Positions 1-48,510 of a stretch of 64,000 nt of DNA are shown piece after piece. Location of the stretch: assembly GCA_002794775.1 (NCBI GenBank), contig NBAY01000093.1, positions 1 through 64,000 on the forward strand, read 5' to 3'. This DNA is from Porodaedalea pini (lineage: Eukaryota > Basidiomycota > Agaricomycetes > Hymenochaetales > Hymenochaetaceae). Numbering within the stretch: position 1 is the first letter of the stretch; every line of letters starts with the position of its first letter. The translations under genes were made by a program, and so were the position numbers. The notes beneath the pieces were generated by a model. It searched no databases, had not been told where the DNA came from, and worked only from the letters and a program-made list of their open reading frames with translations.

Positions 1-299
1 TCTACCCCGCAAGATATGCCTCCTTTCTTCTCGGAGTACTAGTGAGCGAATTTGGCCTCACTAGTACTAACGTGCAAAACCTTTTCCACTTCGGAGACGG
101 TGCAAGTCATCTCAATTGGTTGGCATAATACCCGTTTGTACGAGTTGAGTTCACGTTCCTTCTAAATTCCGACGCGCTGCGTCGATGGATAAAATGTTAG
201 CAACTAACGTGCTTTGATAGTTCTGCATGAGTTTACCTCTGTTTAAGTCATAATACATGATTTGGCCGGCTAAAGTAATCAAGGAGAATCTGATCGCGA

Positions 300-15481: not shown

Positions 15482-15790
15482 CATCAGGAAAAACCTCCCC
15501 GGCGGAAAATAGCGGAATCGCCGGAATCAGCCGGTGATTCCGGCTGATTCCATACTTGGCAGATTCTATAAGGGTATTCCGTATTCTGTGGTATTCTATC
15601 ATTTTTCACCTGTATTCTAGACTTTCTCTAGTATTCTCTTAGCATTCACATCATTTATTCATGCATTCCAGTAGTTCTTCATCATTTATTCATGCATTCC
15701 AACTTTTCTTCATTGTTTATTTGTGTATTCCAGTTTTTCTTCAATATAAATTATGCTATTCCATACTCATTCCATACATGTCCATAGTTA
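15482..15790. mobile_element. left end of a second Plavaka-family element
   Basis: Begins CATCAGGAAAAACCTCCCCG at 15482 and runs into about 300 bp of ATTCC/ATTCT words. The matching right end was not found in the window, so this is a truncated or unresolved second element. The synthetase relic to its right may lie within it. Confidence 0.55.
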
Positions 15791-24749: not shown

Positions 24750-27032
24750 TTAATGTGCTTGCAAATTCTTAGTTTCCTGCGCCGCGAAGACCCCACCTGC
24801 AAAACAACCCGATCCCCCAATCTTGTCTGCCTTCAATCTAATCGCGACATCGCGTGCGTGCGTCGGGAAAACGTGCTTACTACTTCGCACCAGACTCGGA
24901 GTCGGAGTCAGGGGAGGGGTTCTCGTGCGAGGGCCGGTCTCGCAGTGGTCAATGGATTCTCTGCGACGGTCCGCCCGGTCTACAAGTCGCTCGTGGTGAA
25001 CGTCAACGTCAATACGTGCATGAGTGCATTCTATGTGCCACGAGACCACTTGAGCGATGCGATGCTCGAGTTCCTGCTCGAGTTCCTTCGTCAGTCGCAA
25101 AAGGAGCGGCGCATCTGCAGAAGTCCTTCGGGAAAGTAAGGGTGACGACGAACGATCTTGGTTACCGAAGGCGCAGCACTATCAGGGGCTTTGGGATCCA
25201 TCCGCGACTGCAAAAAATACTTCCAGAAGAGTAAGTCATTCGGAATCATTCATATAAACCTATGACTTAACTAAACTGCATCCATAGAGTTTGGGATTTC
25301 TCTGAAAGCATGCGGATGACCTGCCTGTCGTGAACACTGGGACGAAGGACAAGGACGTTTTCGTCCCAGCGGAAATTTGCAGGATCGAAGTTGGCAGTGT
25401 CTTCGCGGGTGAGCTAAACTCGTTGGGGGGAGAGCGCCTCTCTGTGCGCGGCCAATTGTAAAGACGCCCGCAGCAAGCGCCCAGACCTTGACCGTCAAAG
25501 GCCTCCGCCTGCTCGGATTTGAGTCAAACACACCGCCGATGGCAAGCTTCGGTATCAAGACCTCGCTGGATATGGCGGTTGTTTCGGCGCGCCGAACGTA
25601 ATTTTATCGGTCGGGTCAGCTGGCCGTGGTCGATAGGTCTTGGACGACTCGAGGTATCCGTTTCGCAAAGGCCGCACAGCTCACACATCTGGCCGTACTT
25701 GTCCTGCGCGATGGTGGACCGGAAGATTTCAGCAGCAACTCCGACGTCGCACTTCGTGAAGTGATTGATGCCCTCTCCTTGCCAAATGTCATTCTTGTGG
25801 CTTGCAAGTCAGCAAAGTCAGCACAAACTACGAAGTGCGTGAGCGACTTCGGATGATCCATTCCGAGATCGAGCTCTGCGTGCGGTTTCAAGAGCTCTGA
25901 ACTCGTTCCCGGGTAAGCCGAAGATGGTCCTCACGCTTGTCTCTAACAAGGACCCGCACATCTACGCTGGGGGCTGAAGAAGATGTTCGACACCGTCCTC
26001 GGATGTCAGGCTCTATGTGCCCTGATGTCAAACATACGAGAAAAGGAGGGTCAGGACCAGTACATGACTAATCTGGCGCTCAAGTTGAACGCGAAGCTAG
26101 GCGGACTGAACCACACATTGGAGTCGGGATCTCTGAAATGGCTACAGAACACGATGTCAGTGGGAATGGACGTCACGCACCCAGGCGCGGGATGCATCAG
26201 GGAAACGCCGACGATTGCCGCTGTTGCGGCGAGTTGCGACATGAGCTTTATGCAGTACCCGGCGAGTGTTTCTCTTCAGGAGTACAGGAAGGAGGTCAGT
26301 GCACACTTCGCATCGCATTCTGATCTTACCGCTGACAATGATATTGACAGACGATCACGAACGCCAAGAACATGATAATTGAACGGCTCAAGGAGTATAG
26401 GAAGCACATGAAGGCGCTACCTGAACGTATCGTCATTTTCCGTGGAGGCGTTTCGGACATCCTGGCCCGGGCCAGGATGTCATGAAGGCTGAGGTCAGCG
26501 AAATGAAGAAGGCGTTCCGTGACCTCGCGGATTACAAGCCGAAGGTTACATTCGTGATCTGCGGCAAGGGTCACCGCACCCGTTTCTATCTGACTCGGGC
26601 TCAGGATGCAGACCAGACAACGAACTCGAAGGCTGGGACCGTCGTCGACCAGGGTGTGACCGGCATGTGTGACTTCGATTTCTACCTGCAGGCGCATTCT
26701 GCGACACAGGGGATGGTGCAGGCGACGCGTTACACTGTGCTTTACACTGTGCTTTACGACGAGAACAAGTTTTCTGCGGACGTCCTCCAGCAGGGTATCA
26801 ACGATGTCAGCCACCTGTGGGCGCCTGCGTCTGAAAGTGTTAGAGCCGAGCACGCTCACATGCACGGTCTGACCAATGTGAGCGTGCTCGGCTCTATCTT
26901 CACAAGATCCTGCCTCCGATCGAAGGAAGCAAGGAGAGCAAAGTACCGCCGAAGGAGATTGTGAAGAAGGCGGAGGCACTGTGGGGAAGGGGTGTTCACG
27001 AGGAGTTGAAGGGTACAATGTACTACATGTGA
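24750..27032 (+). pseudogene. Argonaute pseudogene (RNA interference)
   Basis: Segments in order: VRPVYKSLVVNVNVNTCMSA (linker 1, about 24.97-25.03 kb), ADDLPVVNTGTKDKDVFVPA and EICRIEVG (end of PAZ, 25.3 kb), VLTLVSNKDPHIYAG (25.93 kb), QYMTNLALKLNAKLGGLNH (26.06 kb), VGMDVTHPGAG (first PIWI Asp, 26.17 kb), LPERIVIFRGGVS (26.43 kb; family has RDGVS, so the second Asp is Gly), YKPKVTFVICGKGH (26.54 kb), VTGMCDFDFYLQAHS (26.66 kb), YDENKFSADVLQQGINDVSH (26.76 kb) and the C-terminus KAEALWGRGVHEELKGTMYY-M then TGA at 27032. Frameshifts lie near 25.97 kb and at two inverted duplications (26456-26481, 26841-26896). Introns seem retained (for example near 26.30-26.35 kb). The N-terminal domain upstream of 24.75 kb is not clear. 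Confidence 0.88.
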
Positions 27033-28612: not shown

Positions 28613-29039
28613 CTAGAGAGAGATGCGCTGATGCTTAGCAAGAGGGAGCCCTACTTTGTCATAGTCTGCTACAAAGTCATGGTTATCCTCAGGAGAAAAG
28701 AAATAGTGATACATTGTCACTGCCTCCTGCTGAGACCAGCCACCCCAAGCAGCAACCATATCAGGAGTCCAGCCTCTGTACTTCATCCAAAACTGGCATC
28801 CACCTTGACAAAAGAAATGAGTTCCAAATGCAGCCCATCTCTTATAGAGAAGAGACTAAAGATCCTTGTTGAGCATGCGACTGAGAGTTGAGGAAATCTG
28901 AAAAAGACAGTGAGTAGAATAAAAGAAAAGAGAGAAAAAGAAATACCAATTGATTTGAAGGATCAACTTTTCCTGTGTTATCAACAGCCAGGAAAAGTAA
29001 CTTCACATCAAGTTCGTTCATCAGAGAGACCGAAAAGTG
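28613..29039 (-). pseudogene. tyrosine recombinase (Crypton-like), C-terminal part
   Basis: Minus strand reads SVSLMNELDVKLLFLAVDN and TGKVDPSNQ, then an intron (GTATTT..TTTCAG), SRMLNKDL, a stop, and WAAFGTHFFCQGGCQFWMKY followed by RGWTPDMVAAWGGWSQQEAV and TMYHYFFSPEDNHDF. GTHxFRRGG...WGGW..Y is the tyrosine-recombinase box II layout; here the usual Arg pair reads CQ, so the key Arg is lost. It is cut at its upstream side exactly at the palindrome 29040-29073. Confidence 0.7.
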
Positions 29040-29073
29040 GTTAGATCGGTTCTTGAACATGAACCGATCTAAC
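29040..29073. repeat. 34-bp palindromic end, left
   Basis: Perfect 13-bp inverted arms (GTTAGATCGGTTC / GAACCGATCTAAC) around the spacer TTGAACAT. Weaker related sites lie at about 29162-29190 (GAGATCCGTT..AACGGATCTC) and about 29286-29310 (GATCTGTTC..GAATGGATC), roughly 120 bp apart. The stretch 29073-29500 holds only these repeats and A-rich tracts. Confidence 0.85.
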
Positions 29074-29644
29074 ATTTTTTTAAATTCCAACTACATGTAA
29101 CACATCTTGAATGGATCATAATAAAGTATGTGAAGTGCCCGATGTCCAAATTCGAGCAATGTGAGATCCGTTCAAACAGAAACGGATCTCCATAGAAAGA
29201 AAAGAAAAGAAAAGAAATAAAACCCCACTGCGGAGAGTGTTAAACATTCTATGCTTTGAACAGTTCTTAAGAAATCAACGATGTGTGATCTGTTCAAATG
29301 AGAATGGATCATGATAGAAACAAAAGTAAGAGAAAATAAGAGAAAAGACCTTCACTGAGAATCTTTACCGTTCTCTGCTTGAATGGTTCTATTAAATCAA
29401 TATATGCGGGATTGGAGAAATGATAACGAGAGGGTCAATGATACAAACATAGTCAAGCTAAAAAAAATGGCACCGAACCATGCGAATGTAATGCCATTCA
29501 TTTTACTTCCTATGCTTCTTGTTCTTCGCTGAGACTGGCAGGTCAAGATCCAACCTCTGCCTGTATGAAAAGCTCAGCCTTTTCTGTGTAATAGATAAGT
29601 TAAAAAGATACTTACAGTTTAATAATGTTGCGAGTGCTCTTCCG

Positions 29645-31405
29645 CTAAGAATTAGATATCGAAGCCTCTTCCACGTGGGTCTTCTTTGATGGTCTTTCAG
29701 TAGACTGCTTAGAGGTAGTAGCTCCAATTCCTGCACGCCGCTTCTTTGACTTCTTGACAGACTCAATGTTGTGTCTATCCTCATGCACCGTAAGAACTTG
29801 AATATTGTCGCTGACATACTCAGGAGGTTCCATAGCGACTGGAGAAGAAACTGAACTTGCTGCATCTCCGGAGTCGGTTGTATTGAGATTGTTGGCACCA
29901 GGCTTTTCTGTACATTCCAGAACAGAGTCTTGAGTCTGATGCTGAGATGTGCCTTGCGGCGAAGAATCAGAATAATTGTTGTCCACATCAGTCGCTTTGT
30001 TAATGCTCGAAGTCAGGACCTGCGAAGAACTTGAGCTTGGTATGACTGGCATCACAGTGCAAAGTGTTTCATCCTCTGGAATGGCTGGCATTTCTTTTTG
30101 CATGGATGACACAGGGAGAGGGATGGGAGCATTGTTGATAACATCAGAACCAGTCATGGATGATTCACCATCAGTCTCACCACTCGAGGCCATATAATTA
30201 CTCTGAGAGTAAGGCAATTCCTTCGCTGTGGATTATTGGTGATGCAGATAAACAGTAAGCAAGAAAGACAAGAGTCGTATATATTTTAATACTCACTTTC
30301 TCCGAACGCCTCCTTTGCAAATGACTTCCAGGCTTTCAATATTTTTCCTCTCTTATAGTATTTACTATTGTAGAACAAATTCCCTTCAAAATTCATATGA
30401 AGACTGTAGATCATATAAGTGATTGACATCACAGAGCAATATAAAGTCCAACGTACCTATCCACAGTGATCTCGCCACTTGGAGAGCGGAACACGTACTG
30501 TATGTGAAAAATGGCGTCTCCCACAGACCAGCTACTATTATGGCCACACAACCCAGTCATGAGACACTGCAATACATCAGGAGCCTTGTTCTAATTCCTA
30601 AACAAAATTGCATCAGTTCAAATGTTCAAAGACTAAATGAAAGCAACATACTCTTCTATGGCATCATCATCTACATTACCTTCAACTGCAATCCTAGCAT
30701 TCTCTGCAGAAGCCCGCATTTCATACTCATACTTCTCCATTTGAGATAGCGCATCATACACCTCCTTCTGAACAATGGATGACAGTCCTCGATTGTTCTT
30801 TTTCCCGTGCTCGCATGATGCTGCCAGTTCTGCAGTGTGCTCTTTGATAAGATCTTTATGTTCGTGAATGAATAACACTCTGCCAGTAATAGTACACTCC
30901 TTTTTAAAGAAGTTCGCAATCACATTGCAGTCCTTCTCAGATACAGTCTTGATGACTTTACCCAGACAGTCCTTGTGTTTCTCATTCAAAAGGTAACATA
31001 TTGCTCTCTACAAATACATTAGTATTTATGAAATGAAAGCTTGAGAAAGAAACAGTGCACCTCTCTATGGAAGTTGAGTTCGTTCTTTGGGAAATCGAAC
31101 TTTTTCACGTACTCTTCTGTGAGCGACGCCTTGAATGACAGTACAGCCGGGTTGTGTGCCTTATGATGCGGAAGATTATAGAAGAGCGAGACATTCTCGT
31201 TCAGCCATGTCTTCTGTTCTTCAGTAAACTTTACTCAGTTTCCTTTTTTCTTTCTGAACTCCGCATTCAACTCTGTGGTTGACAGTACATGTACATCAGA
31301 GGAATCTCCTGATTTGTTTGCCATGTTTGCCATGTTTGCATCCTTGGACTTCAGCACTGCATGAATAGGAAGTGTAGTCTGCTTGAGATTTGCTTTTGAG
31401 GACAT
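29645..31405 (-). CDS. unknown protein, multi-exon, cargo of the KDZ element
   Basis: Starts MSSKANLKQTTLPIHAVL at 31405. Exons read on through FTEEQKTWLNENVSLFYNLP, then LLNEKHKDCLGKVIKTVSEK, HEHKDLIKEHTAELAASCEH and LSQMEKYEYEMRASAENARI, then DVLQCLMTGLCGHNSSWSVG and DAIFHIQYVFRSPSGEITVD, then NFEGNLFYNSKYYKRGKILK, and end in a serine-rich, lysine-rich tail (VKKSKKRRAGIGATTSK). Introns fit GT..AG. One in-frame TGA at 31235-31237 (FRKKKGN*VKFTEEQ) sits where CGA would be open. No known domain was recognised. Confidence 0.45.
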
Positions 31406-31797
31406 GTTAAAATGTTGAAGACCTAGTAAGGATAGAAAAGTAGGAAGATGACGTGGTCAGCCAAAAGACACAGTATATAAGGCCGAAACTACTGCTTACT
31501 TGTGAAGCACATTGTAAAAGCATAAACCACTTAGTGGACCACAATTTTATGGCCCAAACACAAGAACAGCGCTTGCTCACCTTATCATGTTGGCATTGTT
31601 TTGTACGAGCTAATTTCCCTGGTCCAAGCACTGACGGGGCCTAAGCACATGGGCCTGGCTCATGATGAGCTTGGACATCAAGTCTACAATGATAGAATAT
31701 CTCGGGAGACACATAGTGATCATATCCATTCATTTCAACCGAAACAAGTGCTCCAGGCGCTACACAAAACGTTCCTGAGATTAATTCTACAGCTATT

Positions 31798-32841
31798 CTA
31801 CTTCCCATAGCATACCTTCTTGCCGTTCCTCTTACTCGTTTCCTTGTCCATGGACGTTGTACGAGGCCATTTTTGAGCGAGTGGACTAGACAAGTGTCCA
31901 TCATCCTTGTCTGACGAGCTGATCTCAATAACACCCAGGTCCTTCGATGGACCCGCTTCATTTGAAGTCGATCTGGAGGCCTTTGGCTGCAGCACGGTCT
32001 TCAATGAAGCCTTGACCTCACACATAAAGGTTTGCAGGCTCAGTGGAGAAGAACTCCCAGTCGCCAAAGGTGATGAAAAGAAGGGTCGTGTATTTCCCTT
32101 CACAGCCATGGCCGCCCTTTTCGGTGTCTTCGGTGTCTTCGGTGTCATGCCATCAAGCAGCTTCTTAAGTACCTCGCCTGTGGCTGGCAGACTTGTCACT
32201 GGCACCATAGATGGTGCAATTGAAGTGATCAAGGACCTGGCAGGTGTTTTGCGAATCAGAGAAGACTTTGAGATGTGGTCAGACGAGAACGTGGACTTGC
32301 ACATCTTGCCGGCCAGAGAAGACTTCAACAGTCCGCCAGCCTGGGCGGGACTCTTGTCAAAGTCAGAGTCGGAGTCAGAGTCGGACTTGCCGTCGAAGCT
32401 ACAGGATGCTAGCTCAGCCAGTTTCTGAGCGGTCTTCTTTCGATAGCTGTACGGGATAAGCTCTTTCAAGAGCTTCCTGTTTGCGCTCTGAGCTGCTTTC
32501 CCAATGATTGCAGGAGGTTCCAATTCTAAGATGTTGTGAATGCAGGCGGCCCTCGTCACATCATTCATTTGTACACCTTTGAGCGGTTTCTGACAAAAAT
32601 ACCTATTTGCCTTGTACTGTATACTTGGGTGAGCAAACGAAGTAGGATAGCAATGAAAACAGACGCACTTGCAGAAACAAAAGACCCAGATTTTGTCTTT
32701 CCACTTCTCCGAGACAGAGACAAATCTTGTGGTGTTGGTCGCAACTGAGTTTAGGGAACTCAGAGACCATCGTCGCAAACGCGCAGCTGATATCTGTTCA
32801 AGGAGGAAGATGAGATTGCAGAATTTGAGCGACTCGAGCAT
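31798..32841 (-). CDS. unknown serine/lysine-rich protein, cargo of the KDZ element
   Basis: One open frame of 347 residues. Parts near residues 95-150 (DVTRAACIHNILELEPPAII, KLLKELIPYSYRKKTAQKLA) look folded. The rest is low complexity: an SDSDSDSDFD acidic stretch from GAGTC-type repeats, TPKTPKTPKR repeats, and an EISSSDKDDG motif near the end. The N-terminal 85 residues may be non-coding, with the real start further in after an intron. No homology was recognised. Confidence 0.35.
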   Translation of the reverse strand: MLESLKFCNLIFLLEQISAARLRRWSLSSLNSVATNTTRFVSVSEKWKDKIWVFCFCKCVCFHCYPTSFAHPSIQYKANRYFCQKPLKGVQMNDVTRAACIHNILELEPPAIIGKAAQSANRKLLKELIPYSYRKKTAQKLAELASCSFDGKSDSDSDSDFDKSPAQAGGLLKSSLAGKMCKSTFSSDHISKSSLIRKTPARSLITSIAPSMVPVTSLPATGEVLKKLLDGMTPKTPKTPKRAAMAVKGNTRPFFSSPLATGSSSPLSLQTFMCEVKASLKTVLQPKASRSTSNEAGPSKDLGVIEISSSDKDDGHLSSPLAQKWPRTTSMDKETSKRNGKKVCYGK

Positions 32842-33069
32842 CTGAATTGTGAGGCGCGAGTTCTGCAGTAGGATAGATATGCATAGCTTGGATTGAGAAT
32901 ACTAAGGAAGAATCTTGAGCAACGCAGACTTTATAAGTATGCAGACCACATACTTCACGAGACAGTTATTGTTCAACAAGCAAATGCAAGGCCTCGCTAG
33001 CCTCGTCATTTTTGTTCTCAGCTCATCATTTCTGGCCATGCACCGCAATTCAATGATTAATAACTATAC

Positions 33070-33650
33070 ATTCATTGCTTAGTCCCAGCTCATGCAAATG
33101 AAGTATTCAGGTTCTATCTCGAAAAAGTTAAGCAATCCCTCTGCTGGGTTGTCCTCATAATCTGTCTCGCTCTCCATTAGTATGCCTTCCACACACAACT
33201 CCCTAAGCCCAAAGTCCATCAAAGTGACAACCATGTTATGAAGATGGCATGGTCTCATATGTCTGATCCAGTCATGTGTATCTCTTGGTATGAAGCACTA
33301 TAGCATTCCCATAAGATTACAATCAAATTGATCTTTATGAAGTATGAACTCACGTATAATTTTGCTTGACCAACCTCATAAGGGTGTTTCCGACCATAGT
33401 TCTTTCTGACGATATGGGTTCATCCATGTATGCAGCTAAAACTGTCTGCAATCTCAAACATCAAGTGCATAGGGAGCTGACATTGCACGATGTGCTCGAC
33501 AAACCATGGTATTTCGTACGTTGGCATGTATGCCTCATGCAGTTGGAATCGTAGAGTTTGGAGCACATAAGAATGTGTTAAACAGGCATATAAATAAGAA
33601 AACAGAAGGGACATACTGATTTTCCACTCAGATTTCATGAACCGGCCCAT
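33070..33650 (-). CDS. possible exons of an unknown gene
   Basis: The minus strand has LRFQLHEAYMPTYEIPWFVE, HIVQCQLPMHLMFEIADSF (33.55-33.43 kb) and WIRHMRPCHLHNMVVTLMDF, GLRELCVEGILMESETDYED, FFEIEPEYFICMSWD then stop (33.26-33.08 kb). The composition is protein-like and a splice between them is plausible. No family was recognised. The rest of 32.85-34.86 kb shows no gene I can support, apart from an inverted repeat at 34212-34339. Confidence 0.3.
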
Positions 33651-34211
33651 ATGCCCGCGTGTTTGGTCATTCGCCAGGACAAGAGCAACAAAACATTACT
33701 ATGATATTCATATCATTATCCTCATGTCGATTCATGCAAAATGGAGAGCCTTTCTATTCAGAAATTTGAAGTGGCTTGCCGGGATAAACTAATTTTTACA
33801 CAAGAGCTACACGTGCCGATGGCGAAACACAAGAATAACAAGAACAAAAAGACCTAGCTAACAGAATGGGAATTATTGGCTAGCTCATAATTCCATTAGC
33901 ATGCAGTAGGCAATTTTGATGTGTGGTATTGAGTTCACATCCTGATTGAGCCCGAACTGTTGAGCAAAGAACTGAGATCTAGGGCAAGCTGTATGACTTA
34001 CTGGACAACCCACGCCTCTATGCCATTTTGAGCAGTAAAGTGCTTGTTGGCCTTGTCTTATGAGGCCATTCCCATATCTACATTCTTGCAGCACACTTCA
34101 CTGCTTTGATGCACGTTCGGGGTGGCAGCAATGATGATGACGGCCTAAGTGTCGTGCAGCTGCTGTAAAGATGGTGGAGACAGAGCTGAAAGGGGTTACC
34201 AGTGATCTCCA

Positions 34212-34339
34212 AGTGCTTTTGTTCACGCTGATTGTGAGAATATCCTACCTTGTCAGTCTAGCTTACAAATTTAAAACACGTAACAGTAGTCTAATTTGAA
34301 AGGAAAACTGTTCCCACAATCAGTGCGAACAAAAGCGCT
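34212..34339. repeat. inverted repeat, 29-bp arms
   Basis: AGTGCTTTTGTTCACGCTGA.. at 34212-34240 is mirrored at 34311-34339 with four mismatches, most of them CpG-type transitions. The loop is about 70 bp. Confidence 0.7.
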
Positions 34340-34861
34340 CGGCAAACACCGAGGCAAGCCTTTCACCTCAGCCCCCATCACATTCATTGTGCCCACTCAC
34401 CATGCACATTATTGTCCCTCATTCTGCTCAAACCGTGGCCCACTATTGTCTTCATTGACCTGCATTTTAGGACAAGAGCCTGCACTGCCCTCAGAATAGG
34501 TGAGTCTGCACCTATTAGCTCTGTGCCCTGCATCCACTGACTTCACCCCATTCTCTACCTCACCGTACTATGCACCGTGGGCTCAGCGAGCGGTAAGCAG
34601 CTTTCACATACTAAATATCTTGTCTTTTCTGTCAGCTCATTTGCTTCACACAGGTGACTCCTTTGAGCTCAGGATCCACAAGAACTTGACTCGCACGCGG
34701 TGTAGCATTCTCAAGCGACATCGTCAAGCAGATCGTGCATCCTTATTTTCTTCTCATAATTATTTCCCTTGTTTGTGCTTCGTGCATCTCACTGGTTTGA
34801 CAGACTAGTATCTAGTAGTAAAAAGCTGTGTAGATTGAACTCATAGTTTTTACAAACAAAT

Positions 34862-37740
34862 TTGCACATAAGACAAAAAAAAAGACAACAAGAAGGTAAA
34901 TTTGCACAGAATGCACAAAGTAAAAGCAGTACATTAAAAAAATTATGTCAGATGACGGAAGATACCCTTTGCACACAAGTCATGTCCTTTCTTGACATTG
35001 AGGCTCAAGTGTTCGATGATGACAAAGATAGCTTGTTTGACAATGATGATGAAGGTACGCGACTCAGTCGTTTGTATGTTTCGATACCTGAATGTACGTT
35101 CGATCAAATTTAGATTTCATTGACGATAATGTTTGTTCGACTGCAAGTCAAGCCTCCTCATCTCACGTTCTGCAGGATTCGGGTGCTAGGGAAGATCTTG
35201 AGGGTATTGCGGAGAGGTTTAGGAAGCGTGCATGCACTGGTCCTGCCCTGTATGATATCTCCGAGGAGACCCACCCAGCTCTTCAATCTATTCAAAAGAC
35301 CTGCCGTTTCCCTCCCAATCTTGGAATTGAGGACTCCAAGCACAAATTAATGATGATACACATTGCTGTGTGTACAGTTTTCTTTATTACCTCATAACTT
35401 GACTCTTATCTCATATAAAAGCCTGGGAAAGAAGTGAAATCGGCTGCTTTTGCTCAGGATTGGCTTCCACCCGATTGCTTGGCTCTTGCTGTGTTGGTTT
35501 TTCCTGGTTGAATTTACGTCTGGGCTCCAAATGCAAAAATAGTTTGCGACTCATACGTCACGCGTGGTATCACGTTGCCTTCTTGCTGTCTTTCTTTTGT
35601 TCCATCTGCTGATGATAATTTGGTGTTTGATTGTTGGGATGGACTGCATTCTAGGAAATATGAAGTAGGGAACTGGGTCTTCATCCATCGAGGGATGTAT
35701 TGTAACGACATCACCATCATATGAGAAGCATTGGAGGGCGACGCACTGAAGCTGGCTGTTGTGCCACACATACAGACAAAGAGCAGTGCTCAGTCGAAAC
35801 GCCCAGAACGCGCTCTTGTAACACCTGAACAATTAGCTGCTGAATTTCCAAAGGAAAAAAAAAACATTTGCATTGTCTCAGACAATCACTTCAAATTTTG
35901 TAAGGCGGACTATGTCGACAACTTGTGAATCATTACAGTACCCGGTTTGCATTCTGTACGATGAGCTACTCCATCTTTGCATGATGTCTTTCTGTTCGCT
36001 CATACAGATCTTGGTGATCTGGAGAGTGTAGAATTCTACGTTCGACGTGGGGACACCGTAGTAATAGTTTCTGGACCATTTCAGTTGATGGCTGGCATGG
36101 TCACATCACTTAATGAAGAGACAGTTGTACTCGGTCGTGTCTGTCACATAGACAGTATTTTGGTTGGGATGTCAGACGAGGAGATTGAGAACGCTGGGCT
36201 TGAATTTCTGACTTCTCGTGGAAAAGTTCAGGATCTCCAGGATTCGGAGCCTGTATTGCAGGACATCACCATATCTTGGAAAGCTATTTGTCAACTCATC
36301 GATATTGGTGACAACGTCACTGTGAAAGCCGGTCCACGTTCAGGGGTGTCAGGCTTCATTGTGGCGATCGAAAAAAAAAAAAATTCATTGTTTATTAATG
36401 AACACAATGATATAGTATGCATTCTCTCTATGAGTTATGTTTTATTTACTGACAGAAAATGGCATTCAAATGCTAGCTGACAATTTGATTGAGTTGGGTC
36501 GAAACTACAGATGTGGCCAACAGTAGCGTTTTGCGCAAAGCCAGGATTCAACCTCTGGCTTACGGCACTAGCATCATGATAAAGGATGGTCAGTTCAAGG
36601 GCCACCGGGGGTTCATCTTACAGGTCAAATCCAAAGTCGTGTGAGTCCACGTGTTCGAACGCATAACGCGAACAGTACATCTTGTAATTGTATCGCAATT
36701 GTGAAACTAACTACTCCTCTTCTAAGCTTGAACTTCCCTTGCACTCAGTCGAGGAATGCTTGCATGATGACATGGTGAAGAACAAGATAAGGGACCTCTA
36801 TGCGTATGAACGAGAGGTGCACAATCCATATGTCAGCAAGCGTGTGCTCATTTGAGGTCAGGAGGGCAAAGCAAAGTTCGCCAAGGGTTTCTGCGGATAC
36901 GTTATGAGCATCGACGGGACGAACAAGACAGCACAGGTGTCATACGGCATGCAAAACACTGTCAAGACATTTGCCCTTAGAAGCCTGGTCTCAATGTACG
37001 TACTTGCATGCTTATCAAGTCAACTTACTGCTAACTCTTTTGGCGCTGAATACAGCAACAAAATTTGCTGTTTAGACTGCCTATATCCCTTGACAGATGT
37101 AGAAAGGCATGAGTACACAGAAAGGTTTAAGGACATGCGTATGGACTCCATTATGTCCCATCCCTCCACTCCACTGCATGCATCAACTTCCATCTCTGAT
37201 GATGAATGGGCTCTAACGCCTGATGAATTATTGGAACTGGCTAAATTGGAGACTTTATCTGGTAAGTGTTATGTACTTATAATCGAGACTATGCTGATGA
37301 GCTCGTAGACTTCTCTGGACCTGGAATGTGGATTCTTTTGCCCACTGTATGGGCTCTTTTTTCTAATTACAAGGTTCACTTAAAAGTGTTGTCAAAGGAT
37401 AGATCTGGAGTCCTCATTATCGCCGACCCCTTCGACAACCACACAAATTGCTCAACATCACACAATGGGTGTCGTGTCAATGTTAATGTCGACACAGGAC
37501 ACGGATTTTCATCATCGCTTTTGTCGGTTTTGGACTTATGTTCGCATATACCCACAAAAAAAGGAGAACTTGTCGCTCAGATCAGAGTCCTTGATGTACA
37601 CATCGACAGGATTCTGGAAGTAGCAGGCCTACCCTGACAGAGAGATGGAGGCCCAAAGAAGGTCACAGTCTGCATTCTGGGGAACAAGAGACACTGTTGG
37701 GAAGAGCTCGCCTCTGATGTGACAAAAGTCAAGCTAAAAT
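34862..37740 (+). pseudogene. Spt5-like protein with NGN-like and several KOW motifs
   Basis: Acidic start (DIEAQVFDDDKDSLFDNDDE), then GIAERFRKRA, an NGN-like part (SAAFAQDWLPPDC..FPG*IYVWAPNAKIVCDSY, 35.43-35.55 kb) and KOW-type loops: YEVGNWVFIHRGMY (35.67 kb), VRRGDTVVIVSGPFQLMAGM (36.03 kb), IDIGDNVTVKAGPRSGVSGF (36.30 kb), MIKDGQFKGHRGFILQVKSK (36.58 kb) and VLI*GQEGKAKFAKGFCGYV (36.85 kb). Spt5 is the RNA polymerase II elongation factor that carries this domain order. Four in-frame TGA (35509, 35722, 36853, 37635) all could derive from CGA. The gene lies inside the KDZ composite just upstream of the transposase, in the same direction, so it looks like element cargo rather than the host's essential SPT5. 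Confidence 0.7.
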
Positions 37741-38021
37741 AGTTTGTACGGTTCAGCGGATTATAGTGTGTCATGTCAGTTATTCTACTCTTGCAGACTT
37801 CTCATATGTTCTCATGACCTAGGACGACTCCAGCATTCCTCCATTCTCTGAATAGCATATCATTTCACGAACTTTGTAGATGCATAACTTATTGTCTATG
37901 TATAAACTGTTTTGTGGCCCAGCTGCATGGCCTGGTTGATAGAAAGGCATTGTCCGCTTAGATACACGAAAGGTATATATACTGACCACCCTTAGTTTTT
38001 GCTTGACAATTACTTTTGACC

Positions 38022-41000
38022 ATGGCTCGCAAGACTTCCATCCTACCAAAAGCAAATGAATACTACATGAGGAGCCACGACAGTGACAGCAGTGATACCA
38101 CCAATAGTGATGAAGATGTCGGAGGGATCAAAGTTTCCAGAGATGAATCAAGGTCAGCAGGTACGGGAAGTGTCATTGCATCAATGGAATGCGGGTGCTT
38201 ACGGCAGGCGAGTTCCTTGTCTACTTTCTTGATAACACTGTCTCACTCAGTTTGAGACAGAATAGCTCATGTGGGGGTGTGCATGTAATGCATGCAGCAA
38301 TACAAGAGCAACTCATGCCCGAAGCCACAAAGCTGGCTGGAAAACCTACTGAGTCAATAGCGGTGAGTGGCCACGAAACATCATACGTGATATTAACTCA
38401 CATTCACATTACAAGCCATGCAGAAATTCCTGCTGGGAAGAAAGCGAGGCACAAGACAGCAAAAGCGAAGAAGGGTTCATGGTAAGCATTCAATGATATA
38501 GTGAAGGTCCTCTCACTGATATACAATCAGCGGCAATCCGCAGAACACCTGCTATCGGGTTTTTCTGAATATAAGACTAGAATTCAAGACCTCATTATGG
38601 ATATCGAGTATGACTTGAATGTCGGTAGTCTATGCAAATGCGGTAGGGAAGGGAAATTATGCCTGTATTGTTGCTGTGACTGTGCACGGGTTGATGTGGT
38701 CTGTGATGCATGTTTACTAGAGCGTCATGTCCATTGCCCATTCCATTGGGCAGAGAGATGGACTGGCGAATATTTTGAGCATGTCAATCTTGTGTTCGTG
38801 GGTCTCAAGGTTCATCTGGGGCATGCAGGCCACAAATGTCCATCCGCTACATCTGGGGGCTACGATTTTACTATAGGAGATGTAAATGGGATACACAAAT
38901 GCCGGATTGTGTACTGTGCATGTGCGGGGAAGGATGACATTGTGTTACAACTCATAAGATACGGTCTATTTCCCGCCTCTGTTAAGTTACCCCAAGTAGT
39001 GTTTACATTTAACGTGCTGAGGGATTTTCACACACATACGACTGTCTTGAAGAAGTCTGCGTATGACTATATGATCGGGCTTCAAAAAAAGACTAATAAT
39101 TACATTCCTTCAAAAGTTAAGGTGCGTTTGATTAATGAACTTTAGTGTTCCTGAAAGTTAAATTAATTCCAACAAATTAGGTCCCATCCCAGCAGTTTAT
39201 ACATATTGCGCACTACTGGCGGTTTCTACTCGCTGAGCGGAGGAGTGGGCAGCTTCATAATGTTGATGATTCATCACTCAGTCAGCTGCTTGGATCATTC
39301 GCAGTTGTTTGTCTGGCATGTCCCCTTCCTGGTCTCAACACTGAACAAGATCTCAGTTTGCAGTAAGTTTTACGAGCATCTACTGCGCTCTGTTTTTACT
39401 CATGATGTTGAAAGCTATAAGAATCAAAAGAATATATCCGTCGATGTGAACTTCCACCTCATTGGATTGATCAAAAAGAATAATCTTCGCAAAAAGGCAT
39501 TGTGGGGCGGACGTGGATATGTTAGGAAACAAGAAGACCTGGACATGCATATAAATAAATATGGGGAACTCAAGGAGGAGGTACGTGAGCCACACAAATA
39601 ATCATAAGCTATTTCTGACTGGGCTCTAAGAAATCTACGTGTTCTAGATTTCAGGCAATTGATAATGTGAACATGTTGAAACATCGTGGCCAGAATGCCA
39701 GTGGCCTCGTTATGGTTTTGTGCAAGCACAGGCTTGGGGAGCCAGAGGGAGCTGTTAATTTACAGTATGGCAAAAGGTAAGTATATCTGATAGTCATGCT
39801 CATGATCGAACTCATGCTGTATTTGTAGGCACATTAACATCGACTATGCCCTAGTGGGTGCCCTGAAAGGCAAGGAAATGATCAAGCAACTCATTCTTTC
39901 TTATGACATAGGCTGCCAGTACTCTGTTAAACTCATAGAGAGGTTTGAGACATGCTTTCCCAAGTCTGTTGATATGATTCATGACATGAAAGTTCTCGTT
40001 GGCAAGTTGCATCTTTTCGGTCATATCGAGTCATGTCAATATGGGTTTTCATTTAATTATATGGATGGTGTCGGTCGTACTGACGGAGAGGAAGTTGAGC
40101 GCTGGTGGTCAGAAGCAAATCTAGTTGCTGGAAGTACTAAGCAGATGGGGCTGGGGCACCGATGCGATACCCTTGACAATATCATTGGAGCATGGAACTG
40201 GTCCAAGATTGAATCAATGGGTATGTGCTATATAAATTTTGACTATTAAGGTACAATATACTAATTTACAGTGCAGCACGAACTCTTGCTAGATGCTATA
40301 AAACTGCGCAGGAAACCTTTGATAAAGTGAAGATCAGTTTTGAATCTTCAGATTTGAGCATGTGGCATATATACAGTGAGAAAGTTATTAAGCAATGGGA
40401 GGGAACGGATACAAGCCCGTACAAGGATTCAAAAGGCGAATGGGTTAGTGTCTATCGACCTAATCCCACTTGTAAGTTCTGTTAACTTTTGCGGCTGTTG
40501 GACCCTGTGCTAGTGCTTCATGAATTCATTTTGCTGAAGCTTTGCCATTTTCTAGATCCTTCCCAAGCAAAGGTACTCGAGAGCAAGGTACTGAAACCCA
40601 GGGATGGACTCCATCTGAAAGCAAAGGGAAAACTTGCTATTTTCATAAGTACCGGTATCTTGATTCAGTTCCACCAGTCAGAATGTCTCACATCTGGTTT
40701 TCAATCATATAACTAATTCTTATGTACAGGCAAGAATTGAAATCCAAGAATGGACACCAGTCCTTAAAAGCCGCTCGCATGGCATTAGAACATGAGGTAA
40801 AGAAATGGCGCTCCCAGCAAGTGTTATTCATGCCCAGTGTATGGGAGATTGTCGATGAGCACAAGGGCAACATTGAAGATGAGACTCTGTGGCTCCCGTC
40901 TTCATTTACCAAGGACAAGCGTGCATTTCATCATCTTCAAGAACTTGCTGATATCAAATACAAACTGTGGGAAGGTGAAGCATATGATGATCTCCAAGGT

Positions 41001-41796
41001 CTAAAGGCTGCTCTTCAGGAACGTAGCTACTTAGAAAGCCAGCAAAACAAATACAGCTTTGGAAAGCAAGAAAAGATGAGGACTGCAAGAGCACAAAAGC
41101 AAGTGGATGATAAGAAGTGGAAATGGGCCAATGAATATCGAACAACACGTGCTGCACTCATTGCTCTCAGTATGGATGATGCAGACACTACACTTCATCC
41201 ATTGAAAGAGGAGGATATGTATCAGCCTTCAATCACTGAACCTCATGAACTTGGGTCGGGGAGAAAGACTGATGGTTGGGTGTGGAAAATGGGTCACAAA
41301 GAAAAGGACTCTCAGGAGTGGGTGAAAGAAGGTACATTTATTCTTCTCATAAAACACACAGGCTGATGCTCTTGTAGAGGATCATGTGCTATGGTTCCAC
41401 TCGCATGCTTCCCGAGATTGCTGGCAAGAAGAAATTGTCATTGTCAAGGAAGAGTTCAAAAGGTTGATTCGTGGCTTTGAGGCACTGTCTAGGACATGGG
41501 CTATGGTGGCTTCCAGTATGCAAAGATCTGGTTCACCTGGGCCGTCTGCATACGCATCTCATAAAAAGGCCATCTTCCATGCTATGGCTAACAATGCTCT
41601 GGATCTCTTTACTGACTGTGGCTTACTTTTTGAAGAAAAATCTTCACCTTCTAATGCAGTACTCCATAACACTGTAGTAAACACTGACCGGCCGCTGAAG
41701 CACAAGTCTTCTCCTAAGGAACCTAGTAAATGTGGTAAGTTCTCACATTACTTTTATATAGGTCGTCTAACTCGTCTGTTTATAGTGCGCATGTAG
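38022..41796 (+). CDS. KDZ transposase with CxC2-type cysteine cluster, apparently intact
   Basis: Starts MARKTSILPKANEYYMRSHD at 38022, with about ten exons. The cysteine cluster (38.62-38.95 kb) has CKCGREGKLCLYCCCDCARV, CDACLLERHVHCPFHWAERW and GIHKCRIVYCACAG. The transposase core has VDVNFHLIGL (39.44 kb), LILSYDIGCQYSVKLIERF (39.9 kb), VGKLHLFGHIESCQYGFSF and GVGRTDGEEVERWWSEANLV (40.07 kb) and DTLDNIIGAWNWSK. These are the conserved acidic motifs of the Kyakuja-Dileera-Zisupton family. A long C-terminal helical region follows (EHEVKKWRSQQVLFMPSVWE). No internal stop was seen, unlike most neighbours, so this may be the youngest element. KDZ elements in Agaricomycetes often carry extra genes; no TET/JBP gene is visible here. 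Confidence 0.85.
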
Positions 41797-42016
41797 TTGT
41801 GATATTAAAGAACCATTCTAACATGTTCCATGTGTCTGGTATCTTCGCTCTCCTTGAACCATTCAATTTTATCAGACTAGCTTTCTTTTACTCCCCTTGA
41901 TCTGTTCTATTATGTTTTTCTGTGTTTCGAACCATTCTTTCATCACTCTTTTTTTACAAAGCTCTACTTTACATTTGTAGTAATGTTGTAGTATTACTCT
42001 ACTCTCTCAATATACT

Positions 42017-42050
42017 GTTAGATCAGTTCAGAGCTCTGAACTGATCTAAC
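42017..42050. repeat. 34-bp perfect palindromic end, right
   Basis: GTTAGATCAGTTC, spacer AGAGCTCT, GAACTGATCTAAC. The spacer is itself a palindrome, so all 34 bases are self-complementary. GAACCATTC-type words at about 41.81, 41.86 and 41.94 kb form the inward subterminal repeats. Confidence 0.88.
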
Positions 42051-43765
42051 CATTTATCAGTCCTTCGTTGATCCAACTTGCTGTGGTGCCTGAGGAAAAG
42101 GAGACCTGAGGTGTTTGCCTCATGCTTATAAAGGCCAACAACACAAAGTAGAGCTCTGACAGGGCAGATGATAGGGTCCAGATCATTGGCATGGAGAACC
42201 ATTCGCTGGCAGCCCCCAGTCTGTGCATTCTTCCTGGTGTCTAGAGTGACAGTGAACTTTGAGACTAGAAAATGATGTAAGAAAGAAATGATAACCAGAT
42301 TCAAAAAAAGACGCTCATGTGAAGTCATGTCAATGTTAGTAAAGTTGAGACTCAGGGTCTCATTAAGATGCTCTAGCAAGAGCCAGGCAAAAAGATATAT
42401 ACACTAGAATTTGCTTCAGTAAAAACAAATGCAAAAAAAACTGATCAAAAACTCGAAAAACATACATATCTGATGGTCCCTGAACACCTTTGTGCATTGG
42501 ACAACTGCTCACCACTGATGCATGCTCTGTGAAGTGCACACATATCACTGTAAGTTACAGCACAGGCAGATGTAGAAACATCTCCCTGCTTTGCCATCTT
42601 GTATCAGAGGTACAGTAGGGGGTAATAACCACAAGGTACTCTGTAAGAGTGACAAGGCAGTAAGCGCAGTGTGAGCAACAGACAACCAGAGAGTGTCTAA
42701 GTGATCAGAGATCAGGATACTTCAGTATAACACTCTGGATAAGATAAATACCTAAGTGATCAGAGATCACTATACAAAAGAGGTAAGCAACTGTGGAGTG
42801 AAGAGTAGAACACTACTTACGGATACTTCAGTATAACACTCTGAAGTATCCGGCTACTGGAGCTGGGGTTTATATAGACTACAGAGAGGATGGTGTCATA
42901 TGGTGCGATGGTCATGTTACATCAGAGTGAGTCATGAATGCGCAATATTAGTACAGAGAACAATAGTGAAAATGATGACATCACATGAGTCAAGAATGAA
43001 CAAGAGTAAGTCATAATAACGCAAGATTCCAACATCTTGTTCTTGAGCCCGTGCATAAAGCAAATGATGAGAAGAGAGCGAGATGGAAGGCCCTTGCTTT
43101 AAAGAAAGAGAATCAATATATCATATAATTGAAGGCCAATGAGTATCTCACCAATTTCCACTGCTATCTACAGACCAAGAGACTCGGTCTGCACCAGGAT
43201 AAAGCAAAAGATACCAGTAGGTAATAGCAGCTCGAGTTGAAATTGCAGTTGCATACTATTCTCATGGTTAGAATATCATGCTAATTGTCCATGAGATCAT
43301 GCACTTGCCTTGTTTCCTTGAAACCCTTTCTCTTTTGGCCCACATTTATATGTGATAAAGCACACAATATCACCTGGAGTTTTTGAAGTGATGGATTTAG
43401 GATCCCAACTGTGAGCTTGGTCATGGTGAAAAGCAATATAATTTGAGATGATTCTGTGCAATTTGTATGAGGTCTAGAGTATTATCATCTAAAAAGCAAG
43501 CTACAGACCTTATATGCCCCTTCAAAGTTTTGTCTGTGATATTGTTCTTCACCATTTCTGATGCAAACTGACCCTCCGGTGAGGCATCAACTTCACAGAA
43601 TTCCTCAAGATATTCCATGACTGTTTCTGCCAGGTTATCCATTGCCCAGGCATCATCATCCTCATCCATCCTTGAAAGAATCTGCAGTATCATAGTTTTA
43701 ATTATCTGTGAGAACTGTCAGAGCTAAATTTGTCTCACCTTCTCTTCTTCAGGTGTCGAAGCCAT
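42051..43765 (-). pseudogene. tyrosine recombinase (Crypton-like), N-terminal part
   Basis: Starts MASTPEEEKVRQI at 43765. The next exon has MDEDDDAWAMDNLAETVMEY and ITDKTLKGHIRSVACFLDD (43.68-43.45 kb). A later part has SSCPMHKGVQGPSD (42.5 kb), ETLSLNFTNIDMTSHE (42.35 kb), KFTVTLDTRKNAQTGGCQRM and ICPVRALLCVVGLYKHEANT, then SGLLFLRHHSKLDQRRTDKW (42.25-42.06 kb). RKNAQTGG and CPVRAL are typical of fungal Crypton-type recombinases. The frame runs into the 34-bp palindrome and stops there. Exons between 43.4 and 42.55 kb are not resolved. Confidence 0.65.
42717..42851. repeat. direct repeats and a perfect hairpin
   Basis: GGATACTTCAGTATAACACT occurs twice (42717 and 42821). The second is followed by CTGAAGTATCC, giving an 11-bp perfect hairpin with a 9-base loop (42821-42851). 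AAGTGATCAGAGATCA also occurs twice (42.70 and 42.76 kb). Confidence 0.8.
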
Positions 43766-44859: not shown

Positions 44860-47800
44860 TACCCCCCCTCAAGGCTGGGCGTCCCGACCAGCCATGATCG
44901 TGGTCATCAGGTTCAGTGTTGACGAAGAGTGGACGGAGGCGTTTGCAAGGGATGTCGAGTTTACGAGGGGTGCCGGGGTGTTTTTGATAGAATTCTGCGA
45001 TCACCTCCTTTGCATTCTCGCCGAAGTCCATCTCAGGCTGCCAAGTCGGTTCGTTGTAGCCAACCTATTTGATGAGGTACTGTAGTTTTCCTTGGTGTAG
45101 GCACGAGTCTAGAACCTCCTCGATTTCGTACTCCTCCTCATTTTCGATGATATCAGGCGGCGGCAGTGGTGGTTGTTTCTGGCTTTCGAAGGACGGTTCG
45201 ACGGCGGGTTTCAGCAGGGCTTCGTTGAAAATGGGGTGTATCTTTTCCCATCATTTGGGGAGCTTGAGCTTGTAGGCGCTCGCTCCTACCTTGTCAATGA
45301 TGTCGAAGGGCCCATACCACTTGTCGGTGAGCTTTTTTGTTGGTGAGTCTGTACTGATGTTCTGTCCATCGAGGAAGACCTTGTCTCCTGTCATGTACTC
45401 CACTGATACCCCTGCTGTCCGGTCATGATAGCGCTTCATATCTTCCGCTGCCTTGACCAAATTTTCTTTTGCAATGCGATGAGTCTCCTTGATGTGTTTT
45501 GTGAATTCTTCCACTGACATGTTAGCGGATGAGGTTCGTGTCATTTCAAAGCTCAAGGGATGACGTCCGGTGTTCACATAGAAGGGGGACATCTTCGTCG
45601 CTGAGTGTTCGCAGTTGTTGTACACGAACTCTGCGAGGGGAAGCCAGTCTCTCCAGTCCAATTGCCAATGGTCAACGAAGAGTTGGAGGTACTGTTCGAG
45701 CTCTTGGTTGATGCATTCCGTTTGGCCATCCGTTTGCGGGTGGTACGCCGTTGAAGGGTTGCCTTCGATGTGCAGGAGTTTGTACAGCTCCTTCATCATC
45801 GACGCATCAAACTGCGTGCCTCTATCATGGATGATCTTTTTTGGGAGTCCGTGGAGGCGGAAGACGTGGTCGCGGTACAATTGAGCCATACCTTCTGCTG
45901 ACAATTTTGTCGTTGTCAGGATCGCATGCATCTGCTTCGAGAACCTGTCTACAAAGATGCAGATTGCATTGTGTCCTTTGGAGTCCGGGAGTTCTCCAAT
46001 TAGGTCGACCGTAATGATTTCCCAGGGACCTTCAGGGACTGCGTTTGGATGAAGTGGCCTTGACCTCAACATTCTTAAGGCTTTTGTCCATTGACAACAG
46101 TCGCATCCTCGGACGTATGCTCGGGCATCGGAGAACATCGACACCCACCAGAAATTGCGACGGACGAGCTCTACCGTCTTCGATGCCCCCGGATGACCAG
46201 CCAGTACCGAATCATGACACTCCCGCAACATGGCCTCCTTCATTGTTGACGGTACGTACACCTTGCCTTTCATCCACCATAAACCGTCAACCTCTATCAT
46301 ACCCATCGGCCTCTCCAACTCGCCCTGTGCCCTCTGTGCTTCACCCACTCGTTCTACCACCTCGTCGCGTGACGTCCGCACCACTCCACGGTTCAGCCAC
46401 TTGTCCTTGATGAACACGACACTGTCATTGTCATCCTTGCCCTGATCATAGCCCACCATACGCGATAGCAGATCGGCCTTGCCCATCGTCTTCCCAGACT
46501 TGTGTTCGAGGTGGAAGTCGAATTCTTCAAGTTCGGTCCACCAGCGAGCTTGACGATAGCTCAGCTTCTGTGCCGACCTGAAGTAGGTAAGGTTAGCATG
46601 GTCGGACCAGATTTCGATCTTGTGGCGAGCACCGAGGAGGTATTGCTGCCACTCCTTGAGCGCCAAAATGATTGCGAGCATCTCCTTGTCGTAGATCTCG
46701 TAGTTTCGTTCCGCCGGTTCGAGTGCCTCTGACCTGTAGGCGATCACCCTCCACTTTCCTTCCTGCTTCTGCAACAACACACCGCCAAGTGCAAAGTTTG
46801 ACGAGTCTGCCTCTATGCGGAAAGGGCCCTCGTCGTTGGCGATGGCTAGGACTGGAGGTGAGCAGAGATGTTGTCTCAGCTCCTCGAACGCTTCCTGCTG
46901 TTCGGTCTCCCATACCCAGTCCTTCTTGCCCATTAATGACATCAACGGTCAGACTACCTTGCTGTAGTCCTTAATAAACCGTCTCAGCCAGTTTCCCATG
47001 CCAAGGAACTGTTGCAGTTCCTTGAGGTTTTGTGGGACAGGCCAGTTCGCAATCACCTCCGTCTTTGCCGGGTCGGCCTTGATCTTGCCATTGCTGATGA
47101 TGTGGCCGAGGTATTTGACAACCTTAGCATCGAACTCGCACTTTTCCGGCTTCAGGTACAGGCCATTTTCTTTGAGGATCTGGAGGACGTGCCTCGATGT
47201 ACCGATATGCTCCTCGATGGTTTCTGAGAGGATCAAGATGTCATCAAGGTATACGATGATCAAGTTAGCATAGATCAGGTCCTTGAAGATATGGTTGACG
47301 AATGCCTGGAACATTGCTGGTGCGTTACAAAGACCAAAAAACATCACCATCAGTTCGAAGAGGCCCATGTTAGTGCAGAAAGCTGCCTTCCACTCATCGC
47401 CTTCGCGGATCCGGATGTTGTAGTACCCCCAGCAAAGGTCAAGCTTAGTGATGTACTTCGCTTTCTTGACCTTGTCGACGAGTTCGTTGATGAGAGGGAG
47501 GGGATACTTGTTCTTGATCGTACTGTCATTAAGCTTACGGTAATCCTGGATCGGGTGTAGCAATTTGTCAGCCTTCTTGATGAAGAAGAAGGGCGACACC
47601 ATGGGTGATATCGACTGTCGGATACGACCAGACTTCAAGTTCTCATTGAGGAAGTCTTTTAGTGATTGCTGCTCAGTTGGCATGAGCGGATAGATCTTGC
47701 AATCGCTAGGTTTGAAGTTGGGTTTCAAGTCGATGATGTGGTCCCAGGGTCGATGCTCTGGCAACTTCTCAAAGCCTTTTTTGCTGAAGACATCAGTGTA

Positions 47801-48510
47801 GTTGTTGAGGTATGCAGGCCAGGATGCCTTGTCCATTCACACCTCTCTCACCCTCTTCATCTCTTCCATGACCTTCTCGACTTTCCGCATGTCCTCTTCC
47901 ACAACCTTCTCGATCGCACATTCACTGGGACAGCGGGTGAAGTCGAGCATACCTGTCTTCCAGTCAACCTCAGGGTTGTGACGTCGAAGCCAGTCATACC
48001 CTAGGAAGATGTTCGACGATGCAAGCAAGGTTACAGCAAGGACAATCCGTTCCTTATGGTGACCGATCGTAAGTTCCACGTTGACATATTCTTCGATCAT
48101 CCCAGCCTCGTTGTGGGTGCCATCGGCGTTGAGCACTGTGAGGGGTCGGATGTAACGCTTTGTCTCCAGCCTATACTGTTCGATGAATTTCACATTGATG
48201 CACGATCCAGTACACCTTGAATCCACAAGGGCATGCGTGTCCACCTCTCTCACTTCACCCTCTACACTGTGTCTGACATTCAGGAGAAGGTCCAGCTGGC
48301 GTCCGCCAGTTCCTCTCATGAACAGCTGCTCGTATTCTTCATTTTTGTTCACACCGGTGGGGACTTCGTAATCAGGAAAACCATCGACGTTGTTGGCATC
48401 TATATATTTTACAGACAGTTGGTTATATTTTAGTGAATCCGGATTCGAAGTCCCTTGTTCTTCTCAGTCAGTCGCCCCGATGGCTACATCTGACCACTTG
48501 CAAAACCCTG
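44860..48510 (-). pseudogene. pol: gypsy pol: protease, RT, RNase H, integrase, chromodomain
   Basis: One frame is kept from about 48510 to 44860. Protease: ALVDSRCTGSCI; the family has Gly after DS, so the active site is altered by G to A. RT: KLDLCWGYYNIRI and IIVYLDDILILS. RNase H: IEADSSNFALGG. Integrase: ECHDSVLAGHPG..CDCCQWTK zinc site, then VDLIGELPDSKG, IIHDRGTQFDAS and STAYHPQTDGQTE, so D, D and E are all present. Chromodomain-like tail: YEIEEVLDSCLHQGKLQYLI then *VGYNEPTWQPE. Stops: TGA at 48464, 47837, 46949 and 45251 (all CGA-compatible) and TAG at 45065 (Trp TGG). A chromodomain would direct integration to modified chromatin. Confidence 0.92.

What the first reader, a model, noticed from the sequence alone, without database searches (positions are those of the whole stretch)
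29040..42050. 13-kb KDZ composite with 34-bp lox-like palindromes at both ends
Both boundaries are 34 bp with the 13-8-13 layout known for lox-type recombinase sites. The arms differ between the two ends at one base (GTTAGATCGGTTC vs GTTAGATCAGTTC) and the spacers differ. Inverted subterminal GAATGGTTC words lie inside. The segment carries a KDZ transposase, an Spt5-like gene and unknown genes. Palindromic ends on a cargo-carrying KDZ element would be a new element architecture. Which enzyme acts on the sites is inference.
Basis: partly seen in the sequence, partly recalled or inferred. Interest (0 to 1): 0.85.

Follow-up and report, generated by a model that had tools for sequence, protein, structure and literature searches.

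The report
Transposon with palindromes near its ends
A 13-kb jumping gene, in what looks like a fungal genome, carries a three-gene set and a palindromic DNA box about 42 bases inside each of its true ends; the boxes are probably docking sites for its own proteins rather than lox-like recombination sites.

Summary
The two 34-bp palindromes are real but are not the ends. Eight of eight empty target copies and other copies in the genome put the ends 43 bp (left) and 42 bp (right) further out: window 28997-42092, 13,096 bp, with a 7-bp target duplication, AGGAAAA. It is a multi-copy KDZ DNA transposon. Fifteen loci (hand tally) have both terminal motifs and the same three genes: CxC2-KDZ transposase, Spt5-like KOW gene and an opposite-strand unknown gene. 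A palindrome of two inverted GAWCNGWTC words stands out at 20 of 24 fetched ends, 35-47 nt from the end, also in a divergent subfamily. The word is enriched in the subterminal strips. This fits binding sites for the transposase or a partner protein. The lox reading fails: the right palindrome is fully symmetric, the spacers differ, the sites are internal, and no recombinase appeared among the pieces scanned. Surprise: relative to the two distinguishable termini the gene cassette is inverted between two subfamilies (7 versus 8 copies), with switch points in the subterminal strips. New variant of a known kind; moderate interest.

The parts
28990..28996 (.). left 7-bp target-site duplication AGGAAAA
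28997..42092 (+). complete KDZ transposon, 13,096 bp, type A
   Evidence: 8 of 8 empty sites; colinear 13,099-bp copy at C45, 94.5% identical
28997..29039 (+). GTAA-type terminus (GTAACTTCACATCAAGTT...)
29040..29073 (.). left subterminal palindrome, arms 13, centre TTGAACAT
29109..29389 (.). seven GAWCNGWTC-like words (up to 1 mismatch) in the left subterminal strip
29504..33695 (-). opposite-strand unknown gene region (one or two spliced genes; main exon 31801-32841); limits approximate
   Evidence: no Pfam family
35092..37634 (+). Spt5-like gene with KOW domain; exon limits approximate
38486..41790 (+). transposase gene: CxC2 in 38501-39145, KDZ domain 39830-40198, C-terminal exons to about 41770-41790
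41810..41937 (.). four GAWCNGWTC-like words in the right subterminal strip
42017..42050 (.). right subterminal palindrome, perfect 17+17
42051..42092 (-). CAGG-type terminus (read inward CAGGCACCACAGCAAGTTGG...)
42093..42099 (.). right 7-bp target-site duplication AGGAAAA

Best explanation
Window 28997-42092 is a complete KDZ-superfamily DNA transposon inserted into a copy of a dispersed repeat. Its two distinguishable 42-43-bp termini (GTAA end, CAGG end) are imperfect inverted repeats, each followed by a palindrome of two inverted GAWCNGWTC words and then by scattered single words. Likely working: the transposase (through its CxC2 cysteine cluster) or an element-encoded partner binds the words as dimers; the paired site near each terminus sets the KDZ active site on the outer ~20 bp; the ends are synapsed, cut out and pasted with a 7-bp duplication. 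Shown: ends, duplication, multiple copies, three-gene content, palindrome conservation, word enrichment. Inferred: which protein binds, cut-and-paste, and the roles of the Spt5-like and opposite-strand genes (perhaps expression in silenced chromatin).
For: Empty sites 8 of 8. Exact 7-bp duplication in 8 of 11 copies with both flanks fetched, C93 and C10 being probably one insertion. KDZ and CxC2 domains. 15 loci with both terminal motifs and three genes (hand tally). Palindrome above all 60 shuffles at 20 of 24 ends, 35-47 nt from the end. GAWCNGWTC in both strips of three copies, reached by 0 of 300 Markov sequences each. Type A arms GATCGGTTC and C54/C76 arms GAACGGATC, each kept at both ends. 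CxC clusters were proposed to recognise DNA (passage in PMC12062965 citing Iyer 2014).
Against: No binding or transposition data. Four of 24 ends lack a clear palindrome: C45b (interrupted by an insertion), C46 (weak), C1 (degraded), C50 (none, with no second end seen). C76 shows no duplication and C45a only 6 of 7. The word also occurs at lower density inside the element. Window and C45a copies show little third-position excess and some stop differences, so these copies may be decaying.
Confidence: 0.72

Rival explanations
1. One reading: lox-like sites at the boundaries, used by a site-specific recombinase to move or excise the segment.
For: 34-bp length and, at the left site, 13-8-13 spacing.
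Against: Sites lie 42-43 bp inside the element; the right centre is symmetric and the two centres do not match; spacing between words varies from 6 to 10 among copies; no recombinase family among the pieces scanned.
Confidence: 0.03
2. The palindromes are mainly structural (cruciform or hairpin) or kept by replication-slip or conversion repair, without being read by a protein.
For: Arm length and centre vary (26 to 46 bp, the 48-bp C10 optimum set aside); C46 and C3 CAGG ends carry matching changes in both arms.
Against: The same word recurs singly in the strips; within type A, arm changes at the CpG are often one-sided (C10, C45a, C45b, C15).
Confidence: 0.15
3. The boxes are transcription-control sites (terminator, insulator or promoter element) for the flanking element genes, not transposition sites.
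For: They lie in non-coding strips beyond the 3' ends of the unknown gene and of the transposase gene.
Against: Near-fixed distance to each terminus at 20 of 24 ends, although the terminus-to-gene distance differs (518 and 455 nt).
Confidence: 0.1

Closest known systems
Kyakuja (KDZ) elements, Kojima 2025 (PMC12730594; abstract, sections 3.1.1 and 3.2, passages)
   Same: KDZ transposase, 7-bp duplication, extra genes carried in the element; the CAGG end fits the CA..TG rule at one side.
   Different: Kyakuja is described with CA..TG at both ends and no TIRs; here the other end begins GTAA, the termini are imperfect inverted repeats, no TET/JBP gene was seen in the pieces scanned, and an Spt5-like gene is present.
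Cryptococcus KDZ1-3 (PMC12810828, passages)
   Same: Large multi-kb KDZ elements (about 9-11 kb) with a CxC domain.
   Different: CxC1 rather than CxC2; TIRs of 139-241 bp; 8-bp (KDZ1) or 4-8-bp (KDZ2, KDZ3) duplications; no palindromic box mentioned in the passages seen.
Zisupton and Dileera
   Same: KDZ superfamily.
   Different: 8-bp duplications reported (PMC12730594, passages); here C54 limits the duplication to 7 bp.
Subterminal transposase-binding repeats of P, hAT and En/Spm-type elements (recalled; P, Herves and Galileo papers seen only as search listings)
   Same: Repeated short words near the ends that bind transposase.
   Different: Here the word is also paired into a long palindrome at a near-fixed distance from each end.
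loxP-type recombinase sites (recalled)
   Same: 34-bp length; 13-8-13 layout at the left site only.
   Different: Position, spacer symmetry and spacer identity all differ.

Membership tests
KDZ DNA transposon superfamily | KDZ transposase domain | tested here: met
   PF18758, E 1.7e-35, 123.1 bits against cut-off 26.6
KDZ DNA transposon superfamily | CxC cysteine cluster in the transposase gene | tested here: met
   CxC2, 102.3 bits against cut-off 27
KDZ DNA transposon superfamily | fixed-length target-site duplication and mobility | tested here: met
   exact 7 bp in 8 of 11 copies; 8 of 8 empty sites
Kyakuja | 7-bp target-site duplication | tested here: met
   C54, C46, C3 and C15 exclude an exact 8 bp
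Kyakuja | CA..TG termini without TIRs | tested here: not met
   one end CAGG, the other GTAA; imperfect inverted similarity between ends
Kyakuja | place in the transposase tree | not tested
   no named reference sequences were at hand
Zisupton / Dileera | 8-bp target-site duplication | tested here: not met
TET-carrying KDZ transposon | TET/JBP dioxygenase gene in the element | tested here: inconclusive
   no hit in the pieces scanned; not every reading frame was scanned
lox-type recombination site | asymmetric central spacer, identical in the two partners | tested here: not met
   right centre AGAGCTCT is symmetric; left is TTGAACAT
lox-type recombination site | site is the crossover point at the element boundary | tested here: not met
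   boundary is 42-43 bp outside
composite transposon | two complete flanking elements mobilising unrelated cargo | tested here: not met
   one KDZ match in this element and the same gene set at 15 loci (hand tally)

The most novel reading that the evidence does not exclude
The paired palindromic boxes are exchange points at which a KDZ element can flip its whole gene cassette relative to its two non-equivalent termini. Subfamily A (7 full copies) reads its transposase toward the CAGG end, subfamily B (8 full copies) toward the GTAA end, with the same gene order and both switch points within about 500 bp of the ends. End identity would be separable from the cassette, and an Spt5-like factor would be part of the core gene set.
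Probability: 0.2. Interest if true: 0.7.

Novelty: new variant of a known kind. Interest (0 to 1): 0.48.

Why it matters
KDZ elements are large, little-studied DNA transposons, and none of the papers surfaced by my searches described their end-recognition sites in the text I saw. A conserved word, its paired box near each terminus, exact ends and empty sites make end recognition directly testable. The recurrent Spt5-like gene suggests that these elements carry their own transcription-elongation aid, alongside the TET/JBP genes reported for other KDZ elements (PMC12730594).

Tried and rejected
lox-like and composite readings: rejected as above. An 8-bp duplication (Zisupton-like) was held at first, since base 8 also matches in C93/C10, C45a, C45b and C138; dropped because C54, C46, C3 and C15 fail at base 8 and because counting the first G lines the window's left end up with the homologous end of C54. 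An early reading that the words face the other way in the C76 subfamily was dropped after aligning the arms (GTTAGAWCGGWTC). Concerted arm change as proof of selection: weakened, because within type A it sits at the CpG and is often one-armed. Placing the A/B switch by aligning subterminal strips: in 21 pairings only the three within-subfamily pairs clearly stand out; the best cross pair (A' GTAA strip against B GTAA strip) was reached by 1 of 200 shuffles, weak and uncorrected. Coding homology limits the switch to the last ~500 bp. Palindromes in other KDZ families: none with perfect arms of 11 or more in 30 KDZ loci with 1.5-kb flanks, but similarity between copies ran to the limits of many of these loci, so their ends were probably not reached and this is no test. 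Protein search with the unknown gene's main exon: 0 hits from 4275 candidates; with the CxC2 exon: 6 hits from 32 candidates, none named. Iyer et al. 2014 is not held. No structure prediction was run. The organism was not identified; 'fungal' is my inference from the gene content.

Full report
What was claimed and what is there. The two inverted repeats are at the stated places (29040-29073 and 42017-42050). No perfect arm of 13 or more arose in 100 Markov sequences of 64 kb. The window does contain four other perfect inverted repeats with arms of 11 or more, so such structures are commoner in real sequence than in that model; what carries the case is recurrence at homologous positions in other copies. 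The right repeat is a perfect 34-bp palindrome, because its 'spacer' AGAGCTCT is self-complementary; the left has an asymmetric 8-bp centre.

Where the element ends. The window lies in an assembly of 53,267,584 bases in 201 contigs. Copies share sequence outside the palindromes and part company 42-43 bp further out. Eight loci match only the left flank; all eight run straight into the window's right flank with a single copy of the duplicated word (93-96% identity over 149 bp). The element is therefore 28997-42092 with AGGAAAA on both sides. Of 11 copies with both flanks fetched, 8 (C93, C10, C3, C15, C54, C46, C138, C45b) show an exact 7-bp duplication, C1 shows it with one extra base, C45a matches 6 of 7 and C76 shows none. 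C93 and C10 sit at the same position of the same repeat with flanks 97-98% identical and are best counted as one insertion duplicated later.

What it carries. The transposase gene (38486-41790) has CxC2 and KDZ domains. A second gene (about 35092-37634) has a KOW domain over the curated cut-off; its six weak solved-structure matches (E 0.025-0.095) are five chains named SPT5 and one named 'Protein that forms a complex with Spt4p', so 'Spt5-like' is supported but not strong. An opposite-strand region (about 29504-33695) matches no Pfam family over cut-off. Between the window and the ~81% identical C3 copy, third codon positions change most in the main exons (for example CxC2 33/23/67, KDZ 14/13/36, KOW 32/18/43, unknown main exon 44/53/82 for positions 1/2/3), which speaks for past protein-level constraint, though overlapping antisense frames were flagged too and stops differ in places; between the window and C45a the excess is slight or absent.

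How widespread. The same three genes occur between both terminal motifs at 15 loci, by hand tally: C93, C10, C45 (two), C3 (two), C15, C138, C54, C76, C38, C21, C1, C24, C46. C129 and C31 have the genes and one motif. Of 20 CAGG-motif matches 16 are in these loci (control: 4 matches); of 19 GTAA-motif matches 16 are (control: 0). Several span more than 13 kb (up to about 50 kb for the second C45 copy, which also has a second KDZ match inside), presumably through nested insertions that I did not read. Further gene clusters on C2, C23, C67 and C46 lack these motifs, and C25 has no KDZ match. So the Spt5-like and unknown genes are regular parts of the family rather than one-off cargo.

The palindromes. 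With up to 3 mismatches the genome has 10 matches to the window pattern, all at type A ends (hand tally). Reading 24 fetched ends inward, the best inverted repeat beat all 60 shuffles at 11 of 11 CAGG ends and 9 of 13 GTAA ends, starting 35-47 nt from the end; the 35 is C10, where the optimum ran outward past the usual 42-nt start. The four others are C45b (split by an insertion of about 1.4 kb; its inner part is the 1-mismatch match), C46 (weak), C1 (degraded) and C50 (none). The core is two inverted copies of GAWCNGWTC. With up to one mismatch that word, itself a near dyad, occurs at 7 places in the left and 4 in the right strip of the window, and strip counts were reached by 0 of 300 Markov sequences for each strip of three copies; inside the element it is about tenfold rarer. 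In type A the arm core reads GATCGGTTC, in C54/C76 GAACGGATC, at both ends.

How it probably works. Outer terminus of about 18-20 bp, a paired site at a near-fixed distance and scattered sites beyond: this is the layout of a protein-binding transposon end. The CxC cluster was proposed as a DNA- or chromatin-recognition module by Iyer et al. 2014, which I know here only through a passage in PMC12062965. Binding, synapsis and cut-and-paste are inferred.

An unexpected point. Relative to its two distinguishable termini the gene cassette is inverted between subfamilies: in A (7 full copies) the unknown gene is next to GTAA and the transposase reads toward CAGG; in B (8 full copies) the reverse (hand tally). 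The unknown gene's 3' end (window 29504-29578) is homologous in both; a shared word there lies 518 nt from the GTAA terminus in the window and 455 nt from the CAGG terminus in C54. The transposase gene is homologous to window 41613 by DNA and about 41770 by protein. Both switch points therefore lie in the subterminal strips; whether at the palindromes could not be decided. C1, C46 and C24 (type B) have Spt5-like exons 73-80% identical to the window's but unknown-gene exons only 36-49% identical, which points to exchange of modules.

Known or new. Published relatives seen: Cryptococcus KDZ1-3 of about 9-11 kb with CxC1, TIRs of 139-241 bp and 8-bp or 4-8-bp duplications (PMC12810828, passages); Kyakuja with 7-bp duplications, CA..TG and no TIRs (PMC12730594). 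Searches listed no paper that by title or abstract ties KDZ to Spt5 or to subterminal palindromes. Supplementary files, including the KDZ TIR motifs of Marasmius oreades (PMC8290104, passages), and the Iyer paper could not be read, so absence from print is not established. I file this as a KDZ transposon, Kyakuja-like in duplication length but not in termini, with an end layout and gene set new to me.

Noticed in passing
window 42602-43033: About 430-bp insertion in the right flank, missing from the C10 copy and from at least six of the eight other host-repeat copies, with the direct repeat CATCTTGT at its edges and an inverted repeat at 42820-42852 inside.
   Followed up: partly
window 45251-48352 (- strand): Ty3/gypsy-type retrotransposon pol pieces: protease, reverse transcriptase, RNase H, integrase.
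   Followed up: no
window 35-68, 15523-15551, 26456-26481: Further perfect inverted repeats with arms of 12-13 outside the element, more than the Markov expectation of 0.17 per window.
   Followed up: no
G000 C1:2297185, C1:2568359, C7:321865, C107:35203, C3:919676: KOW/Spt5-like exons 39-44% identical to the element's, with no unknown-gene or KDZ match listed nearby: possible host or domesticated relatives.
   Followed up: no
L050 (C50:283801-283851): A GTAA-type terminus (as GCAA) of about 43 bp followed by no palindrome: fragment or a relative without the box.
   Followed up: partly
L059/L060 (C3 copy): Two nested insertions of about 0.8 kb relative to the window element.
   Followed up: no
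window 29150-29393: Left subterminal strip contains a roughly 122-bp unit in two diverged tandem copies (71% identical), each with an inverted pair of the word.
   Followed up: partly
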